Assembly: GCA_903889985.1 (NCBI GenBank) | Contig: CAISZN010000275.1 | Span: 1 to 35,907 of the forward strand | Length of the DNA: 35,907 bases | Direction of reading: 5' to 3' | Source: an uncultured Hyphomicrobiales bacterium | GTDB taxonomy: Bacteria > Pseudomonadota > Alphaproteobacteria > Rhizobiales > Beijerinckiaceae | Shown here: one piece after another, positions 24,779 to 34,897 of the stretch | Layout of the letters: every line of letters starts with the position of its first letter | Numbering within the stretch: position 1 is the first letter of the stretch | Program-made: the position numbers and the translations under genes | The notes under the pieces: model-generated | What the model was told of the DNA's origin: nothing | Databases searched by the model: none | Seen by the model: the letters and a program-made list of their open reading frames with translations, nothing else

Positions 24779-26314
24779 TCAGCCAGTCTCGGCCAGGAGC
24801 GAGAGCTGCTTGCGGCCATCCTGCTCCGTAAGATCGGTCAAATGGGTAGGGTAGTCTCCGGTAAAGCAGTGATCGGTGAACTGCGGACGCAACGGATTGC
24901 GGCCATCTTCGCCCATCGCCTTATAAATCCCGTCGACCGACAGGAACGCGAGGCTATCACAGCCGATATACGCTCGCATTTCCTCAAGATTATGTGTGGC
25001 AGCGAGTAGCTTTTCCTTCCGGGGCGTATCGATGCCGTAATAGTCCGGATGGGTGATCGGCGGCGAAGAAATGCGGAAATGCACTTCCTTGGCGCCTGCA
25101 TCGCGCATCATCTGAACGATTTTCACCGAGGTGGTCCCGCGCACGATCGAATCGTCGATCAGGATGATGCGCTTGTCTTTCACAACCGAACGATTGGCGC
25201 TGTGCTTCAGTCGCACGCCGAGCTCTCGGATCGACTGTGTCGGCTGAATGAAGGTTCGTCCGACGTAATGATTGCGGATGATGCCGAGTTCGAATGGAAT
25301 GCCAGAGGCCGATGCATAGCCGATAGCTGCAGGCACGCCAGAATCTGGCACTGGCACCACCACGTCCGCCTCGACGCCCGATTCTTCAGCAAGCTGGGCG
25401 CCCATGCGCTTGCGCACATCATAGACGTGTCGGCCGTGCACGATGGAATCGGGTCGCGCAAAATAGATGTATTCGAAAATACAGGGGCGCGCCGGCACCG
25501 GCGGGAATGGCTTGTGCGATTCAATGCCCGCGGGATTCTCCGCCGTCTTTTCGGAAATGACGACCACCTCGCCATTTTCGACGTCGCGCACGAATGTTGC
25601 GCCAATGATGTCGAGCGCGCAGGTTTCTGACGCCAGAATGTAATGACCGTCGAGCTCACCGAGCACCAGCGGCCGGATCCCAAGCGGATCGCGCACACCG
25701 ATGAGCTTCTTGTTGGTGACAGCGACAAGTGAATAGGCGCCCTCGAGCTGGCGCAGGGCCTCGATGAAGCGATCGAGGATGCGTCCCTTCCGGCTTCGCG
25801 CCACAAGATGAAGGATGACCTCCGTGTCGGACGTCGACTGATAGATGGCGCCCTGCCGCACGAGTTCGCGGCGCAGAGACAATCCATTGGTCAGGTTGCC
25901 GTTATGGGCGACCGCAAATCCACCGGAATCGAGTTCAGCAAACAGCGGCTGCACATTGCGAAGAATGGTCTCGCCCGTTGTCGAATAGCGTACATGGCCG
26001 ATGGCCGCGCTGCCGGGAAGTCGGTCAATGGTCGCCCGCGACGAGAAGTGGTCACCCACGAGGCCCATGCGACGTTCGGAATTGAACCGTTTGCCGTCGA
26101 ACGCGACGATGCCGGCCGCCTCCTGGCCACGATGCTGCAGAGCATGTAGGCCCAAGGCCGTGATGGCCGCAGCATCCGGATGTCCAAAAATACCAAAGAC
26201 GCCGCACTCTTCCCGAAGGCGATCACCCTCCAGATCGAAATCCTCGATCTGGCTCTCCGGCGGATACTGATCGTGGATCGCACCGGGGTTCTGGGACGAA
26301 TCGACTCGGCTCAT
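24779..26314 (-). CDS. purF: Amidophosphoribosyltransferase
   Basis: EECGVFGIFGHPDAAAITALGLHALQHRGQEAAGIV (Ntn Cys) and IILIDDSIVRGTTSVKIVQMMRDAGAKEVHFRISSPP PRTase motif. Confidence 0.97.
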   Translation of the reverse strand: MSRVDSSQNPGAIHDQYPPESQIEDFDLEGDRLREECGVFGIFGHPDAAAITALGLHALQHRGQEAAGIVAFDGKRFNSERRMGLVGDHFSSRATIDRLPGSAAIGHVRYSTTGETILRNVQPLFAELDSGGFAVAHNGNLTNGLSLRRELVRQGAIYQSTSDTEVILHLVARSRKGRILDRFIEALRQLEGAYSLVAVTNKKLIGVRDPLGIRPLVLGELDGHYILASETCALDIIGATFVRDVENGEVVVISEKTAENPAGIESHKPFPPVPARPCIFEYIYFARPDSIVHGRHVYDVRKRMGAQLAEESGVEADVVVPVPDSGVPAAIGYASASGIPFELGIIRNHYVGRTFIQPTQSIRELGVRLKHSANRSVVKDKRIILIDDSIVRGTTSVKIVQMMRDAGAKEVHFRISSPPITHPDYYGIDTPRKEKLLAATHNLEEMRAYIGCDSLAFLSVDGIYKAMGEDGRNPLRPQFTDHCFTGDYPTHLTDLTEQDGRKQLSLLAETG

Positions 26315-26439
26315 CTCGGATATCCTCTGCCCGGCTCAAAGCGGACCTGGCGCCAGTGGCGACTCGGCGCCCGGTCCGATCATGACATAGTGTGACGGTC
26401 CTTGCTTTTTAAGCCGTCAATCGAACTGTTCAAAGCCCT

Positions 26440-27123
26440 TCAGCGCTTTGGCGACGGATTGTCGCGACTGAGCAAGGCGTCGATCGTCTGGGAGCTGGCA
26501 GGCGCCGGGGTCGCAGGCTGGACCTGCGTGCGCTGGCCGGGCCGCACCGGAGGCGGCGGGGGCGAGACCTTGTCCGTATCGCCCTCGGGAGGCGGCTCAT
26601 CACCAGCCCCGGCCGGCTTCTTTTTGAGGATCTTCGACAGGCTCTGATCCAGATTTTCTGGCAACATGGCCTGAAGGGAGGTGCCTGTCGCCTCAAGCCA
26701 GGTGCGCGTCTTCGAGTTCTGAACCCAGGCCGGATAGGACTTTTCCGGCACCAGCCAGGCGAAGAACACAAAGGCAATGGCGCACAGGAGATAGCCACGC
26801 CCGGCACCAAACAGGAACCCAAGAGACCGGTCGAGCGCTCCGATCTTCGAGTCCAGGATCATGTCCGAGACCTTGACCGTGATGATCGACACCACGACGA
26901 GGGTCACGAAGAAAACCGCTCCGGCAGCGGCTGCGAGCGCCAGCTGGTCCTTTGCAATATAGGGCTTCACATAGGGCAGCAGAATGGGGTGGAAGACATA
27001 GGCCGCCGCAGCTGCCGCCGCCCATGAGGCAATCGCCAGAACTTCCCTGGTAAAGCCCCGCAACATGGCCAGGAGCGCAGACAGGAAGACTACGGCAATG
27101 ACGCCGAGATCAAGATAGGATGG
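26440..27123 (-). CDS. cvpA: CvpA family protein
   Basis: MPSYLDLGVIAVVFLSALLAMLRGFTREVLAIASWAAAAAAAY; upstream of purF. Confidence 0.92.
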   Translation of the reverse strand, partial: PSYLDLGVIAVVFLSALLAMLRGFTREVLAIASWAAAAAAAYVFHPILLPYVKPYIAKDQLALAAAAGAVFFVTLVVVSIITVKVSDMILDSKIGALDRSLGFLFGAGRGYLLCAIAFVFFAWLVPEKSYPAWVQNSKTRTWLEATGTSLQAMLPENLDQSLSKILKKKPAGAGDEPPPEGDTDKVSPPPPPVRPGQRTQVQPATPAPASSQTIDALLSRDNPSPKR

Positions 27124-27384
27124 CATATGATACAGGCCTCGGGCACGGGGTCGCTTCACCGCCAAACGTTAACTGCCGTGCCGCGCGGTTATACAAAAGG
27201 CGAGACCGCACGTCACCCTCCTGCATGGCGAAATCCATGTTCGGATGGGGAAAATGGAAATATCTTCCCGTCGGGCCTGTGTAAGGGTTTGGATCGGATG
27301 GGCAACGGTCCCATTCCACCGCTAAACTTGCATCCGCGGCCAAACAGTGTAAAAGCCGCCTCCTCAGCTCCGGCCGGGGGCTAA

Positions 27385-27431
27385 ACGGAAGGGTGGCTTT
27401 GCCACTAGGACCTGTCGGTCCGTCTTCCCGT
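27385..27431 (+). ncRNA. Candidate structured 5' leader element of rpsF-rpsR mRNA (three-way junction)
   Basis: Outer stem ACGGAAG/CTTCC(C)GT enclosing two perfect hairpins GTGGC-TTT-GCCAC and GGACC-TGTC-GGTCC, 86 nt before rpsF ATG. Confidence 0.45.
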
Positions 27432-27516
27432 GTCTCCGCCTTCGCAGTGACATCCGTCGGGCCTTTCCGGGGCTCGGAGGGCTCCGCGCCGGGCGACACT
27501 AGAGAAAGGCAGATCC

Positions 27517-27945
27517 ATGGCTCTCTATGAGCATGTCTATCTTGCTCGTCAGGACGTCACGGCCCAGCAGGTCGAGGCGCTTACCGAGCAGTTCAAGACC
27601 GTCATCGAACAGAATGGCGGCCAGATCACCAAGATCGAATACTGGGGCGTGAAGTCCCTCGCCTATCGGATCAACAAGAACCGCAAGGCGCATTTCTCGC
27701 TTCTCAACATCGACGCCCCCCCGGCAGCCCTTGCCGAGCTGGAGCGCCTCGAGGGCATCAACGAAGACATCCTTCGCCAGATGACCATCCGCGTCGACGC
27801 GCATGAGGAAGGCCCCTCGGCCATGATGCGCAAGCGCGACGAAGGTGACCGTGAAGATCGTGGCGATCGCGGCGACCGCCGTGGCCCGCGCCCGGACCGT
27901 CCGCGCCGTCGTGACGAGTCGTCCGTTGAAGGAGGAATTGCGTAA
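27517..27945 (+). CDS. rpsF: 30S ribosomal protein S6
   Basis: [60 protein letters not shown]. Confidence 0.98.
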
Positions 27946-28184
27946 TGTCGGCTGCTGCTGCTCGTCGTCCCTTCTTCCGCCGTCGCAAGACCTGCCCCTT
28001 CACGGGCCCGAATGCGCCGAAGATCGATTTCAAGGACGTTCGTCTCCTTTCGCGCTACATCTCCGAGCGCGGCAAGATCGTCCCTTCCCGCATCACTGCG
28101 GTCTCGGCCAAGAAGCAGCGTGAGCTCGCCCAAGCGATCAAGCGCGCCCGCTTCCTCGGCCTGCTGCCCTACGTCATCAAGTAA
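27945..28184 (+). CDS. rpsR: 30S ribosomal protein S18
   Basis: [70 protein letters not shown]. Confidence 0.98.
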
Positions 28185-28189
28185 GGCAC

Positions 28190-28243
28190 TCTGGAGGGCC
28201 TGAGGGCCCTTCCACCGTCGGCTGCTGGCGAAGAGCCGGTGGC
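28190..28243 (+). terminator. Two consecutive hairpins after rpsR
   Basis: GGAGGGCC-tga-GGGCCCTTCC and CCACCGtcGGCT-gctggcgaag-AGCCGGTGG; no clear U tract. Confidence 0.35.
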
Positions 28244-28312
28244 TTGGTTGGGTGAGGCGGAATTGGCCGGCTCACCCTAACCGCTTCTCGCAGCGGGACA
28301 GCTCGGCGCATC

Positions 28313-29266
28313 ATGTTGTATCAGCTCGCCATCGCCCTCGGCTCCGGTCTCGCATCGGCCGTGCTTTTCCTGGTTCCCGCCAAGGGATCCATGGCGGCGC
28401 TATTCTTTGGCGTGCTCGCTCCCCTGCCCCTCATGATTGCTGCGCTTGGGTTCGGCCCCCGCTCTGCGGGACTGGCTGCCCTGACCGGCACTGTAACAAT
28501 CGCGGCCGTTCTTCACCCCTATCTCGCCGGCGCTTTCGCCTTCTCGGTTGTGGTCCCGGCCATTTTGTTGGGATGGCAGACCCTGCGCCGCAACACCCTC
28601 CATGGGCGATGGACCAGCCCCGCCGCCCTGCTCATCTGGATTGTCGTGCTCACCATTGCCATGGACTATGCAGGCATCGCGGTTATGGCCGTGCGCTATC
28701 AGAGTTTTGACGTCGCAGTGTCGGAATTTGCAGCCCGCCTGGCACCGATGGTCGCTGGCGTTCTTGGCTCGAGTGACACCTCAAGCGTCTCGCCGCTCGA
28801 GTTTGCGCGCGTCATGGTGCTGGCCATGGCGCCGATCGCGGCCGCTTGGGGCGTTGTCGCACTCACCCTCAATCTTTGGCTGGCAGCCAGGATCGCCCAG
28901 ATTTCGGGTCGCCTCACCCGTCCATGGCAGTCCCTGCCGGAGAACTTGAAACTACCGCGCGAGGCGCTCTTCTTCTTTATCGGCGCACTTGGCCTCACCC
29001 TTGGGCTGAGCGACTTCCCTCGCATTCTGGCGTCGACGATGGCCGCCGCACTCGGCATGGCATTCGCACTTTATGGGCTCGCCGTCGTGCATCGACGCAC
29101 CCGCAAGACAGGGGCCCGCGCCGGCCTGCTGGGTGCGCTCTATGTGGCGATCTTCGCCCTGTTTCCCTGGCCTTTGGTCGCTGTGGCGACGGCCGGGATT
29201 TTCGATGTTTTTCGGCCGCGGGCAGCGGTCGCAAATCCCACCTCCAAATCCACTGAAATCATCTAA
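28313..29266 (+). CDS. DUF2232-type polytopic membrane protein
   Basis: Multi-TM protein between rpsR and rplI, a conserved alphaproteobacterial position for DUF2232. Confidence 0.82.
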   Translation: MLYQLAIALGSGLASAVLFLVPAKGSMAALFFGVLAPLPLMIAALGFGPRSAGLAALTGTVTIAAVLHPYLAGAFAFSVVVPAILLGWQTLRRNTLHGRWTSPAALLIWIVVLTIAMDYAGIAVMAVRYQSFDVAVSEFAARLAPMVAGVLGSSDTSSVSPLEFARVMVLAMAPIAAAWGVVALTLNLWLAARIAQISGRLTRPWQSLPENLKLPREALFFFIGALGLTLGLSDFPRILASTMAAALGMAFALYGLAVVHRRTRKTGARAGLLGALYVAIFALFPWPLVAVATAGIFDVFRPRAAVANPTSKSTEII

Positions 29267-29278
29267 AAGGAGTTACCT

Positions 29279-29836
29279 ATGCAAGTGATCCTGCTCGAAC
29301 GCGTCGCCAAGCTCGGCCAGATGGGCGAAGAAGTCCGCGTCAAGGACGGCTACGCCCGCAACTTCCTGCTGCCGCTTGGCAAGGCGCTGCGCGCCAGCGA
29401 TGCCAATCGCAAGCGCTTTGAATCGCAGCGCGCCCAGCTTGAGGCCCGCAACCTCGAACAGAAGAGCGAAGCCTCGAAGATCGCAGAGAAGATCGACGGC
29501 CAATCCTTCGTGATGATCCGTCAGGCTGGCGAGAGCGGCCAGCTCTACGGTTCGGTCTCCTCGCGCGATATCGCCGATGCGGTGACCGCAGGCGGCTTCA
29601 GCATCGCCCGCGGCCAGGTTGCCATCAAGGCGCCGATCAAGACCCTCGGCCTGCACGAAGTTCCGCTGCACCTGCATCCGGAAGTCGAGGCCAAGGTCTC
29701 GATCAACATCGCCCGTTCGCCGGAAGAAGCCGAGCGCCAGGCGAAGGGCGAGCAGGTTCTCGATCGTGAAGAAGTTTCGATGGACGATCTCGGCCTCGAA
29801 GTCGGTGCGGCCCTCGCCGAGGCTGGCGAGGACTAA
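29279..29836 (+). CDS. rplI: 50S ribosomal protein L9
   Basis: [40 protein letters not shown]. Confidence 0.98.
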
Positions 29837-29857
29837 GCTTTACGTTTGTTTTGATTG

Positions 29858-29895
29858 GAGGGCGTGGCAACTCCGTTGCCACGCCCTCTTTCGTT
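29858..29895 (+). terminator. Rho-independent terminator after rplI
   Basis: Perfect 14-bp stem GAGGGCGTGGCAAC-TCC-GTTGCCACGCCCTC followed by TTTCGTT. Confidence 0.85.
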
Positions 29896-29944
29896 GTTAA
29901 GATATTATAGCGTCCGGAATTCGGGCATTGGGGGAGGCTTAGTC

Positions 29945-30413
29945 ATGAAACGCGCAGGTTTGGCGTGTCGCCATCGCTCTCTGCCCGCTCGCATCGCTTG
30001 GGGCGAGTGCACAGGAAGCCCCGAAATATTCGCTCCAGTTCGACACTGTGCGAGGAGGTGGCCCGACAGCTCAGGGGCCAGCCTGTGTCCTGAACAGCCA
30101 GTTCAAACGCAAGGAAGCCTTTGTCTGGCGGGTGCGCATTACCGAGACAAAGACCGGCAAGGACGTCGATGAGAAGGCTCTCAAGAGCCTCCATATCGAA
30201 TTACCGGACGGCGAGAAGGTGCCGATGAGCTATCACGGCCATCCGCCGAAGGACTCCACCGACCACTTCTGGAGCGGAGGTTGGATTGTTCCGGAAAACC
30301 ATCCGACCGGCAGCTTCACCTACACGGTCGTTGCCACAGATGCGTCGGGCGCCGAGACCAAGGCCAAGCCCTTCAACGTCGCCAACTCCCAGCTGACCAT
30401 CGTGGGGAACTGA
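29945..30413 (+). CDS. Small secreted Ig-like hypothetical protein; needs a 1-nt frameshift near 29963-29966 to join its signal peptide
   Basis: ATG at 29945 encodes MKRAGLA; removing one base near 29965 yields MKRAGLAVAIALCPLASLGASAQEAPKYSLQFDTVRGGGPTAQGPACVLNSQF..., continuous with ORF 30048..30413. Confidence 0.6.
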
Positions 30414-30417
30414 CCCG

Positions 30418-31896
30418 GTGACCCGCTCCGTGCTTGCAACGGCACTCGTCTCCATCGGGTTGCTCGTTGTGGGCGCCGTCGGGTCTTCTGCTTCCGCAAA
30501 GCTGGCGAAGGAGTTCGGGCCCAGCGTGAGCCTGGCCGAGCCCTCAGGGGGCTTTGTCGGCCAGATAGCGCTTGCGCCGGAACATGGAACTGCGGGCACT
30601 CCCGTCACCGTGAAGGGACGGAACTTTCCAAAGGATCGCGACTTCGACCTGGCCTGGCGCACCATGGACGGGCGATGGAACACCAATGACAAGGGGGAGT
30701 ATCACGGACGAAGCTATGCGCCCGTTGCCTATCGGATCGCCCGCGTTCATTCGGACGTCCAGGGCAATTTCGAAGCGCATTTCACAACGCCCGAAGACTT
30801 TGGTTTCCAGCACGACATCGTCGTTCAGGATGGCAACCGCCTGCTGACCCAGGCGGGCTTCGACATCGACATGACCATGGATGTGACCCCTGCCAGCGGC
30901 CCTGTCGGCACGCCCATTACGGTCGAGTTCAAGGGCATTGGCTGGCGTCAGCTCGAGAACAGCTGGGACCTCGTCTATGACAATGCCTTCACCGGCTGGG
31001 TTTCATCCGTCACAACTAACGGGACGGCGCGCTTTACCATTCCCGCGACCGGCCGACCGGGCGTGCACGTGCTCGAGGCGATCCACGGCGAGTTCACCTT
31101 CCCCTATCGCAACCCGCAGCAGAATCCGCGACCTGACCGTCCCCGCTTCGTGAAGCAGTTCACCATCACTCCGGGGGCTCCGGTGCTGCCTCCTGCGCCG
31201 GAAGCGCAATTGCAGACAGCCCCACGCGGCCTGCCACCTCAGGGCGATCTCAAGGCTGATCCGCCCTTTGCCCCCGTCGGCACGACCGTTGCCATCAAGG
31301 GCTCGGGCTTCAAGCCCGGCCAGACCTACAAGCTTGCCTTCGCCAGCATGACGGGAAACCGGGTCGGCGGCGTCGACATGTCTGAAGCCCTCAGCACGCT
31401 CACGGAGGCTGTGGCAGGTGCGGACGGCACTGCCACCTTCCGCATCAAGGCCCCGGACGATCTCGGCGGCCCTCATGGCCTCGTGGTGAAGGACGGCAAC
31501 AAGGCCAGCACGGGCGTCTTCAGCATCATCCCGAGCGCCCTTCCCCTGACCGCGTCGAAAGGTCCTGCTGGCGCGCCATTCAGCATCCACCTGAAAGGTG
31601 TTGGCTGGACCGAAACGGCAAACATCTACGCCATGGTCTATGACAACTTCTATTCGGGCTATGCCTGCGGCTTCAACAGCCAGGGAGATGTCGAGATCCA
31701 GATGTATGCGACCGGGGATCCCGGCTGGCATTTCATCGATCTCTATCCGGCCATCTACAAGGGCCAGGAGAGCCGCCCGAACAACTTCCGCATCCCTCAG
31801 CTGACCTACGAGGCTGATCACCCAGGCGAAGACCTTCCGCGATTCAGCTTTGCTTTCGAGATCGTGGAAGGTGATTTGCAGGGCGCAACGCGATAG
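30418..31896 (+). CDS. Large secreted hypothetical protein with duplicated Ig/IPT-like modules
   Basis: GTG start, signal peptide MTRSVLATALVSIGLLVVGAVGSSASA; repeated P..G..G.P(I/V).(V/I)...G.G(W/F) motifs; 4 bp after the preceding secreted ORF. Confidence 0.75.
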   Translation: MTRSVLATALVSIGLLVVGAVGSSASAKLAKEFGPSVSLAEPSGGFVGQIALAPEHGTAGTPVTVKGRNFPKDRDFDLAWRTMDGRWNTNDKGEYHGRSYAPVAYRIARVHSDVQGNFEAHFTTPEDFGFQHDIVVQDGNRLLTQAGFDIDMTMDVTPASGPVGTPITVEFKGIGWRQLENSWDLVYDNAFTGWVSSVTTNGTARFTIPATGRPGVHVLEAIHGEFTFPYRNPQQNPRPDRPRFVKQFTITPGAPVLPPAPEAQLQTAPRGLPPQGDLKADPPFAPVGTTVAIKGSGFKPGQTYKLAFASMTGNRVGGVDMSEALSTLTEAVAGADGTATFRIKAPDDLGGPHGLVVKDGNKASTGVFSIIPSALPLTASKGPAGAPFSIHLKGVGWTETANIYAMVYDNFYSGYACGFNSQGDVEIQMYATGDPGWHFIDLYPAIYKGQESRPNNFRIPQLTYEADHPGEDLPRFSFAFEIVEGDLQGATR

Positions 31897-31932
31897 GGTG
31901 CCGGCGAATATTCAACGCCGGAGTACCATTCC

Positions 31933-32682
31933 ATGTCCCTGCCGCTCGAGAACCGCATCGCCCTCGTTACCGGGGCCTCGCGTGGCATTGGGCGCGCCGT
32001 CGCTCTCGAGCTCGCCCGGCGTGGTGCTCATGTCATAGCACTGGCAAGGACGCAGGGCGGGCTCGAGGAGCTTGATGATGAGATCCGGGCCGTGGGCGGC
32101 GAGGCGACGCTCGTGCCCTGCGACCTGAAGGATTTCGACGCGCTAGACCGTCTTGGCCTAGCGATCTATGAGCGCTGGAAGAAGCTCGACATTCTGGTGG
32201 GCAATGCAGGCGTGCTGGGTCCCGTCACGCCACTCGGTCATGTGGAGCCAAAGCAGTGGGACGATGTAATGGCCGTGAATGTCACAGCCAACTGGCGCCT
32301 GATCCGCTCGCTTGATCCACTGCTGCGGGCCTCCGATGCAGGGCGAGCTGTCTTCGTCACCTCAGGCGTCGGCAGCAGGGCCCAGATGACCGCCTATCTC
32401 GGCCCTTACTCGATCTCCAAGTCGGCGCTCGATTCGCTGGCGCGCATGTATGCGGCAGAGACTGCCAATACGACCAATGTCCGCGTGATGATTGCAAACC
32501 CCGGACCTCTTCGCACCAGGATGCGCGCCTCCCTGATGCCCGGCGAGGATCCGCAGACGCTGCGCACGCCAGAGGACTTTGCACCGCATGTTGTTGATCT
32601 TTGCTCGCCGACATCGACCGAAACGGGAAAGCTCTGGGATTTTGCGAGTGGTGCACTGAAGAGCTTCCGCAGCCCGGACTAG
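31933..32682 (+). CDS. SDR family oxidoreductase
   Basis: ALVTGASRGIGRAVALELARRGAHVIALART, VGNAGVLGP, YSISKSALDSLARMYA. Confidence 0.93.
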   Translation: MSLPLENRIALVTGASRGIGRAVALELARRGAHVIALARTQGGLEELDDEIRAVGGEATLVPCDLKDFDALDRLGLAIYERWKKLDILVGNAGVLGPVTPLGHVEPKQWDDVMAVNVTANWRLIRSLDPLLRASDAGRAVFVTSGVGSRAQMTAYLGPYSISKSALDSLARMYAAETANTTNVRVMIANPGPLRTRMRASLMPGEDPQTLRTPEDFAPHVVDLCSPTSTETGKLWDFASGALKSFRSPD

Positions 32683-32715
32683 GATCTGCGCTCATTGCTG
32701 GTTTATTGAACCCCG

Positions 32716-33224
32716 TCAGATACGGATCATCATGCCATCCGATGGAAGATCAGTCCGGACTGCGTCGTCGGATGGCTTGCTTATGATCTGTCTCCAGTTG
32801 CACGCGAGCTCGCCAAAGGATTGGATGGACGCCACCAGACGACCAAGGTGCAAGCCTGCCATTGACAGGTCATAAATGAACAAAACGTTATTTGCGGGCG
32901 CATCCAGCGACAGTCGGCTACCGCCAGTCACGTGCCACTGGTCATTATAGATAAGAAGCAGCTCATAGAGTTTGCTTCGGTCTCCGTGTGGTGGCATCCC
33001 CACATTGCAGGACAGGAACAGCTTGCTATTGATTTCCTCAAAGTCCGCGATCACGAGCGTTTTCGGTTGATGGTGCTCTCTAACTTTGAAAGCTCAGGAT
33101 CCGTGATTGTCGCTGTGCACTTGGTCTCTTACTCGTTCAGATAGACCCGGATCCTGCCAAGATCAGAGCGCTTTATGCCCTCAAGGTCAATAAAAGTCAG
33201 AAACCCAACTTTCCAGCTGTAGCA
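32716..33224 (-). pseudogene. Apparent CesT/SycH-type (type III secretion chaperone-like) gene, disrupted
   Basis: ORF 32716..33054 reads IADFEEINSKLFLSCNVGMPPHGDRSKLYELLLIYNDQWHVTGGSRLSLDAPANNVLFIYDLSMAGLHLGRLVASIQSFGELACNWRQII, matching the chaperone C-half pattern; upstream coding-like text in another frame with an in-frame TAA at 33129-33131. Confidence 0.45.
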
Positions 33225-33346
33225 TCAGCCATTACAGCCGCGCCCTCCGCCTCATCGCCGGAATTGTGCCCCGATGAATCGCCAGATAGCAAGCATGCTC
33301 AAATTACAACGCGCACCCACGGGTCGCTGTGCCAAACGTGCTAGGT

Positions 33347-34768
33347 CTATGTACGACGGCGGCGTCCACTGAAAGGATTGTTAGAGGTTCGCTTGCTGAT
33401 GCGGATTGGCACACCGTGCAGCCCGAAGGTCTCTCGCAACCCGTTGATCAGAAAGCGTTCGTAGCTTGTCGGGAGGGCATCGAGCTGATTTCCGAACAGA
33501 ACGAAATGCGGCGGTCGGGCCTTTGGTTGCGTCGTATAGCGGATCTTGATGCGGAATCCGGACACTGCCGGCGGCGGCGTACGCTCGATCACGGGTGCAA
33601 GCCAGCGGTTGAGGCGGCCAGTCGAGATGCGGATGTTCCAGATCTCGTGGACCTTGAAGATGGCTTCCATGAGCTTCTCGACACCGCTTCCAATCAGTCC
33701 GGAAAGCGGGATCACGGGTGTTCCGCGCACCTGAGGCAACAGGCGATCAGCTTCCTCGCGAAGCTCGAGCAATCGCTTGCCCGGTTCAGCAACCAGATCC
33801 CACTTGTTGAGGCCGATCACCAGTGCACGGCCTTCCTTGGCGACCAGATCGGTGATTGTCAGGTCCTGCTTCTCGAAGGGAATGGTTGCATCGAGCAAAA
33901 CCACAACAACTTCGGCGAAGCGCACGGCTCTGATAGCGTCAGCAGCGGCCAGTTTTTCGAGCTTGTCCTGAACGTTGGCACGTTTGCGCAGGCCTGCCGT
34001 GTCGAACATCTTCATCTTGCGATAGGAGCCGTCACGACGCGACCAGTCGAACGAAACGCCGATGGAATCGCGCGTGATCCCTGCCTCAGGACCAGTCAGG
34101 AGGCGCTCTTCGCCAAGAATCCTGTTGATCAGGGTCGACTTGCCTGCATTGGGCCGGCCGACGATGGCAACCCGCAGGGGCTTTGAAACATCGAGTTCAG
34201 TACCATCCTCTTCGTCGCCGAACTCAGGATGCTCTTCCTCTTCCTCGACCTGCTCCACCGGCACGGCGGTGTGCTCCGGCAGGGAGCGAAGCAGCGCCTC
34301 ATAGAGCGCACTCAGGCCATCACCGTGCTCGGCTGAAAAGACCAGCGGCTCGCCAAGGCCCAGTTCGAAGGCCTCCATTGCACCGGCCTCGCCCTGCTTG
34401 CCCTCAGCCTTGTTGGCAAGGAGCACGATGGGCTTGTCCGCACGGCGCACGAGATCGGCGAAGTAGCGGTCGTTCGGGACCACGCCAACCCGGGCATCGA
34501 TCATGAACAGGATGAGATCTGCCTGCAGGATCGCCGCCTCGGTCTGGGCGCGCATGCGACCCGACATGGACGCCTCATCACCTTCCTCAAGGCCAGCAGT
34601 GTCGATGATCGTGAAGTCGAGATCGCCCAGATGGGCCTCACCCTCTCGGCGGTCACGGGTCACGCCGGGCTGGTCGTCGACGAGCGCGAGCTTCTTTCCG
34701 ACGAGGCGATTGAACAAGGTCGACTTGCCGACATTCGGCCGGCCGATAATGGCAGCTGTAAAAGACAT
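33347..34768 (-). CDS. der: Ribosome biogenesis GTPase Der (EngA)
   Basis: Two GTPase domains: [20 protein letters not shown] and [22 protein letters not shown]-like C-terminus. Start at MSFTAAI. Confidence 0.97.
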
Positions 34769-34897
34769 GAGAGCCGTCTGGTTCGTCGAACGCGCACGTA
34801 CGGGGCATCGGGCCACCGCCGCCGGTCGACAGGCAACAAGGCGCTACCACAAACCCCGGCGAAACGCGAGGAATTGCGCAGGCAAGCGGAAAAAGGG

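What the first reader, a model, noticed from the sequence alone, without database searches (positions are those of the whole stretch)
30418..31896. Large secreted protein built as an internal A-B-A'-B' duplication
The 492-aa product has a signal peptide and four Ig/IPT-like modules. Second-module text recurs: GIGWRQLENSWDLVYDNAFTGWVSSVTTNGTARFTIPATGRPGVHVLEAIHG versus GVGWTETANIYAMVYDNFYSGYACGFNSQGDVEIQMYATGDPGWHFIDLYPAIYKG. First modules (GTAGTPVTVKGRNF...DIVVQDGNRLLTQAGFDI versus APVGTTVAIKGSGF...GLVVKDGNKASTGVFSI) also align. I recognise no named family. The conserved DxVYDN / GxHxxxxxP pattern suggests a specific binding or scaffolding role outside the cytoplasm.
Basis: partly seen in the sequence, partly recalled or inferred. 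Interest (0 to 1): 0.65.

Follow-up and report, generated by a model that had tools for sequence, protein, structure and literature searches.

The report
Secreted Ig-repeat protein with small partner
The gene encodes a secreted protein built from four immunoglobulin-like modules as a duplicated pair; together with a small secreted neighbour it forms an undescribed two-gene unit found across at least seven bacterial phyla, often beside electron-transport genes, so it is probably an unrecognised part of respiration outside the cytoplasm.

Summary
ORF 30418-31896 (+) encodes 492 aa with a signal-peptide-like start and an A-B-A'-B' internal duplication far beyond chance. A confident AlphaFold2 model shows consecutive beta-sandwiches. 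No Pfam, NCBIfam or PDB family covers it beyond a weak IPT/TIG signature.

A short secreted Ig-like protein lies directly upstream (30048-30413; its signal-peptide start looks frameshifted here). I found the pair in about 75 loci of Pseudomonadota, Chloroflexota, Acidobacteriota, Actinomycetota, Deinococcota, Bacillota and Armatimonadota. The large protein has one invariant cysteine (C417, 72/72; the only one in 57/72), in the most conserved module. The small one also has a single conserved cysteine.

In 19 of 60 loci with enough upstream sequence, redox genes precede the pair on the same strand or are fused to it: 4Fe-4S protein + NrfD (15 loci), Rieske + cytochrome b + cytochrome c, NapC, or cytochrome c.

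Best reading: a periplasmic partner, possibly the substrate-facing part, of quinone-linked electron transfer, acting through module B2. The redox role and the disulfide or metal site are inferred. The window genome has no NrfD or NapC, only cytochrome b.

The parts
30048..30413 (+). Small partner gene: Ig-like secreted protein, conserved core; its single Cys codon is at 30084-30086
   Evidence: Homologous to P0006 (62% identity) and to the small protein upstream of the large gene in about 70 loci. Homologs start about 35 codons earlier with a signal peptide; here that reading frame stays open from 29949 but has no start codon.
29945..30047 (+). Apparently frameshifted signal-peptide start of the small gene (ATG at 29945 is in another frame than the mature part)
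   Evidence: Read: in frame with 30048 the stretch gives ...WRVAIALCPLASLGASAQEAPKYS, which resembles the signal peptides of P0006 and L010. Either an assembly indel or a real lesion.
30418..31896 (+). Large protein, 492 aa, four Ig-like modules A1-B1-A2-B2
30418..30498 (+). Signal peptide (residues 1-27), by inspection
   Evidence: no signal-peptide predictor was available
30550..30873 (+). Module A1 (residues 45-152)
   Evidence: 8 columns of the A1 range (41-152) conserved in at least 90%
30874..31179 (+). Module B1 (residues 153-254)
   Evidence: 22 columns conserved in at least 90%
31180..31242 (+). Proline-rich linker between the halves (residues 255-275)
   Evidence: No column conserved in at least 90%
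31243..31533 (+). Module A2 (residues 276-372)
   Evidence: 8 columns conserved in at least 90%
31534..31872 (+). Module B2 (residues 373-485), the most conserved module
   Evidence: 36 columns conserved in at least 90%; holds H391, K393, W397, D409, N410, C417 and H438
31666..31668 (+). Codon of invariant Cys417
   Evidence: 72 of 72 members; the only Cys of the mature protein in 57 of 72
31588..31590 (+). Codon of His391 (66 of 72), present only in B2
31729..31731 (+). Codon of His438 (72 of 72)

Best explanation
The large protein and the small protein encoded just upstream form one periplasmic (or membrane-anchored, outward-facing) complex. It serves as the soluble partner of quinone-linked electron-transfer modules, and may be their substrate-facing component. 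SHOWN: the two genes are adjacent and co-inherited in many phyla; both proteins are Ig-like and exported; each has one conserved cysteine; module B2 is the most conserved module; redox genes sit directly upstream on the same strand in several branches of the family. INFERRED: the proteins bind each other, by a Cys-Cys disulfide or a joint site; B2 (C417, H391, H438, K393, W397, D409/N410) is an active or metal site; electrons pass between this site and an Fe-S/NrfD, NapC, bc or cytochrome c partner. In the window organism that partner would have to be the bc complex or a cytochrome c, because no NrfD or NapC is found in the genome.
For: Small gene adjacent to the large one in 67 of 87 large ORFs by script; most of the rest are contig ends, tandem copies or overlapping ORF calls, and two have the small gene just downstream; only 4 loci with room truly lack it. 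Small and large divergence matrices correlate, r 0.87 over 46 loci, permutation maximum 0.18. C417 in 72/72, the sole mature Cys in 57/72; small Cys in 56/58, and both exceptions have another small domain or gene with the Cys. B2 has 36 columns at 90% or more, against 8-22 in the other modules. Fe-S and/or NrfD genes precede the pair in 15 loci; Rieske/cyt b/cyt c in L045, NapC in L014, cyt c in L049 and L082, and cyt c fused to the small protein in Calidithermus L063. Redox genes (CxxCH or c3/c4 cluster) near the pair in 20 of 60 loci (19 after removing one alcohol dehydrogenase) against 3 of 248 distal genes. NrfD linkage is scattered over the tree, at least 4 changes forced. A read-through small+large chain folds with pTM 0.76, above the roughly 0.65 expected if the small domain were unplaced (my estimate).
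Against: Most loci (41 of 60), including the window and its closest relatives, have no redox gene next to the pair. The window genome has no NrfD and no NapC, only cytochrome b. No classical metal motif is present, and no cofactor was demonstrated. The docking inference rests on pTM alone; no coordinates or PAE were available. Genes were called by a simple ORF script.
Confidence: 0.45

Rival explanations
1. The pair is an exported metal (copper) chaperone or assembly factor for respiratory metalloenzymes rather than an electron carrier; Cys417 and the His residues hold the ion during delivery.
For: Single conserved Cys plus His. Cupredoxin-like genes sit in several of the NrfD operons (L057, L062, L064). 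NosL, NnrS and multicopper-oxidase genes occur near some Chloroflexota loci (L064, L031, L036).
Against: No CxxC, Met-rich or other known chaperone motif. Copper-enzyme neighbours are single cases. The direct operon partners are Fe-S/NrfD and c-type cytochromes, which need no copper.
Confidence: 0.2
2. A purely structural secreted or surface Ig-repeat complex (scaffold, adhesin, envelope support); redox neighbours are incidental.
For: All-Ig architecture; Foldseek finds only generic multi-Ig proteins. Most loci lack redox neighbours.
Against: Conservation is concentrated in one module and one cysteine, unlike repeat adhesins. Near-obligate pairing across phyla. The cyt c fusion and repeated redox operons.
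Confidence: 0.2
3. An extracytoplasmic ligand-binding or sensing pair that signals to the membrane modules; in Chloroflexota two-component genes lie next to the operon.
For: Histidine kinase and LuxR-type regulator genes next to the NrfD operons.
Against: The two-component genes occur mainly with the NrfD operons and are more simply their regulators; elsewhere the pair stands alone.
Confidence: 0.1

Closest known systems
IPT/TIG Ig-like domain proteins (Pfam PF01833)
   Same: Weak match in 35 of 72 members, 24.5 bits over a 20.9 cut-off in the window protein; Ig-like fold.
   Different: In the window protein the best stretch is only 21 residues; the fixed four-module duplicated layout, the invariant Cys and the small partner are not TIG features.
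NrfD/PsrC-type quinone-linked complexes (polysulfide reductase, Nrf, alternative complex III)
   Same: In 15 loci the pair follows NrfD, mostly with a Tat-type 4Fe-4S protein, in one operon.
   Different: No molybdenum or multiheme catalytic subunit was seen in these operons; the Ig-like pair stands in that place. The word searches 'Ig-like' and 'immunoglobulin' give 0 hits in the NrfD review PMC8076601.
SoxYZ sulfur carrier
   Same: A two-protein periplasmic unit with an Ig-like component and one functional Cys (from general knowledge).
   Different: SoxY carries its Cys in a C-terminal GGCGG tail; C417 is internal in module B2, and no Sox genes were noticed nearby.
Thiosulfate:quinone oxidoreductase subunit DoxA (NF041178)
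   Same: One member gave E 1.6e-5; a DoxX/DoxD-like gene lies near L075.
   Different: In a 47-genome search the only hit had 16 bits against a cut-off of 300, over 57 residues; treated as chance.

Membership tests
IPT/TIG domain (PF01833) | Profile score above the curated cut-off | tested here: met
   24.5 bits vs 20.9, but only residues 53-73 as the best stretch; 35 of 72 members hit at E <= 0.01
IPT/TIG domain (PF01833) | Ig-like beta-sandwich modules | tested here: met
   AF2 model, pLDDT 95.3, all beta; Foldseek hits are multi-Ig proteins
NrfD/PsrC-type complex | NrfD membrane subunit and 4Fe-4S subunit next to the pair in relatives | tested here: met
   NrfD-cluster genes in 15 related loci, most with the Fe-S gene
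NrfD/PsrC-type complex | NrfD present in the window organism | tested here: not met
   No NrfD in the whole genome; no NapC either
NrfD/PsrC-type complex | Known catalytic subunit (Mo enzyme or multiheme cytochrome) in the operon | tested here: inconclusive
   None seen in the inspected NrfD operons; judged by gene content, not by a dedicated profile search
SoxYZ | C-terminal GGCGG motif | tested here: not met
   C417 lies in GYACGFNSQGD, 75 residues from the C-terminus
TQO DoxA (NF041178) | Score above cut-off 300 | tested here: not met
   Best 16 bits
Neocarzinostatin / enediyne chromoprotein | Score above curated cut-off | tested here: not met
   13.9 vs 25 and 10.6 vs 86 bits
Cupredoxin (type 1 copper) | C-x(2-4)-H-x(2-4)-M ligand motif | tested here: not met
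   C417 is followed by GFNSQGD; the next conserved His is 21 residues on; no Met column above 26 of 72
Any redox enzyme | Bound cofactor or activity | not testable with these tools
   Needs purified protein

The most novel reading that the evidence does not exclude
An undescribed class of quinone-linked periplasmic redox complex in which two Ig-like proteins, joined or bridged through one cysteine each, replace the usual molybdenum or heme catalytic subunit and carry a new Cys/His active site in the fourth Ig module.
Probability: 0.25. Interest if true: 0.85.

Novelty: new variant of a known kind. Interest (0 to 1): 0.55.

Why it matters
A conserved, unnamed two-protein unit spread over at least seven phyla and repeatedly placed next to quinone and cytochrome genes suggests an unrecognised electron donor or acceptor step outside the cytoplasm. 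In Chloroflexota it would explain NrfD/Fe-S modules that have no visible catalytic subunit in their operon. The invariant single cysteines make the idea directly testable by mutation and spectroscopy.

Tried and rejected
Pfam, NCBIfam and PDB sequence searches: only weak TIG. Foldseek vs PDB: generic multi-Ig proteins, TM-score on the query about 0.2 or less. Phages and viral contigs: none, so no sign of a phage gene; plasmids: one Deinococcus replicon. DoxA/TQO: one weak member hit, not confirmed. SoxYZ, cupredoxin, neocarzinostatin: motif or score not met. The four GxH histidines as a metal motif: set aside because they occupy the same fold position in all four modules. Literature searches found no description. 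No Rfam match or tRNA in the window.

Full report
OBSERVATION. The ORF at 30418-31896 (+, GTG start, 492 aa) is real. Its two halves align with score 248, where 1000 shuffles reach at most 66. A1 matches A2 and B1 matches B2; the cross pairs are weaker or at chance, so the protein is a duplicated A-B unit. AlphaFold2 with 72 natural sequences gives pLDDT 95.3 and pTM 0.92, all beta. Foldseek finds only generic multi-Ig proteins with whole-chain TM-scores on the query of about 0.2 or less, so the arrangement has no close solved counterpart. Pfam gives a weak IPT/TIG match (35 of 72 members); NCBIfam and a PDB profile search give nothing specific.

A PARTNER GENE. Directly upstream (30048-30413, 4 bases before the GTG) lies a short Ig-like protein. 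Its homologs in L003, L010 and the Deinococcus plasmid (L006) start with a signal peptide. Here the signal-peptide stretch is open in the same frame but the likely start codon (ATG 29945) is in another frame, so either the assembly has an indel or the gene is damaged. A genome-collection scan returned 80 loci from Pseudomonadota, Chloroflexota, Acidobacteriota, Actinomycetota, Deinococcota, Bacillota and Armatimonadota. The small gene directly precedes the large one in 67 of 87 large ORFs by script; nearly all the rest are contig ends, tandem copies or overlapping ORF calls, two have the small gene just downstream, and only four loci with room (L013, L037, L048, L052) truly lack it. Small and large divergence correlate strongly (r 0.87, 46 loci); shared ancestry accounts for part of this. 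The family is sporadic: 2 of 199 sampled genomes of the window's family have a strong match, and 1 of 299 of its phylum. Phages and viral contigs have none.

CONSERVED RESIDUES. Module B2 is the most conserved (36 columns at 90% or more, against 8, 22 and 8). Cys417 is present in 72 of 72 and is the only cysteine of the mature protein in 57. H391, K393, W397, D409, N410 and H438 are at 91-100%. The equivalent position of C417 in B1 is a serine in the window protein, so the second copy of the duplication seems to have been specialised (inference). The small protein also has one conserved cysteine (56 of 58); the two exceptions carry a second small domain or gene that has it. Two exported partners with one near-invariant cysteine each suggests an inter-protein disulfide or a shared site (inference). 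An Actinomycetota subgroup adds a CxxxC in A2.

NEIGHBOURHOOD. In 15 loci (mostly Chloroflexota, also Bacillota- and Armatimonadota-labelled MAGs) the pair follows NrfD, mostly with a Tat-type 4Fe-4S protein ahead of it and, in many, a further Ig-like or cupredoxin-like protein, often beside a histidine kinase and a LuxR-type regulator. L045 has Rieske, cytochrome b and cytochrome c genes just upstream; L014 has NapC 34 bases upstream of the small ORF; L049 and L082 have cytochrome c genes; in Calidithermus (L063) the small protein is fused to a cytochrome c. By script, 20 of 60 loci with upstream sequence have such genes, 19 after removing one alcohol dehydrogenase that matched by chance, against 3 of 248 distal genes. 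On the tree (quick method, SH-aLRT only) the NrfD label needs at least 4 changes, and the other redox types fall in other branches. The window's own genome has no NrfD or NapC, only cytochrome b, and its closest relatives show no redox gene adjacent.

MECHANISM. I commit to a periplasmic redox partner role (confidence 0.45): the pair sits outside the membrane and exchanges electrons with, or forms the substrate-facing part of, quinone-linked modules, using module B2. Adjacency, co-inheritance, invariant residues and operon linkage are shown; export rests on signal peptides and lipoboxes read by eye and by pattern; complex formation, cofactor and electron transfer are inferred. A single-chain read-through model of small plus large (stop codon read as glycine; L085) gave pTM 0.76; the large protein alone would contribute about 0.65, so the small domain seems placed against it. 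This is a rough argument without coordinates.

COMPARISON. It works somewhat like the soluble part of a Psr/Nrf/ACIII-type complex, but no catalytic subunit of those families was seen. It is not SoxYZ, a cupredoxin, DoxA or a chromoprotein by the features tested. The NrfD review PMC8076601 gives 0 hits for 'Ig-like' and 'immunoglobulin', and literature searches returned no description. Gene calls in the loci were made by a simple script, so exact starts are uncertain.

Noticed in passing
window 29945-30413: Small partner gene with an apparent frame break in its signal peptide, either an assembly indel or a true lesion.
   Followed up: partly
L063 7061-7915 (Calidithermus chliarophilus): Small protein fused to a C-terminal mono-heme cytochrome c.
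   Followed up: yes
L006 11347-13329 (Deinococcus sp. D7000 plasmid CP058536): The pair is plasmid-borne in a cultured seawater isolate, a possible experimental host.
   Followed up: partly
L031 10400-12980, L036 1004-2779, L064 952-1467: NnrS, NosL and multicopper-oxidase/cupredoxin genes near Chloroflexota copies, hinting at nitrogen-oxide or copper respiration.
   Followed up: partly
L057 6089-9362, L062 1734-6741, L028/L033, L032/L039, L024/L025: Tandem or duplicate copies of the pair or of the large gene in one genome, mostly Chloroflexota.
   Followed up: no
L067-L079: Actinomycetota copies add a CxxxC in module A2; most have an RND/MMPL-like transporter gene next door (named from sequence, not scanned).
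   Followed up: no
L035, L037, L051, L017, L020, L030: DUF6152-like and other short secreted proteins cluster near several copies.
   Followed up: no
window 24779-34816; L003, L008, L010: In Rhizobiales relatives the pair lies between purF and a short-chain dehydrogenase gene; in the window the rpsF-rplI ribosomal genes sit between purF and the pair.
   Followed up: partly
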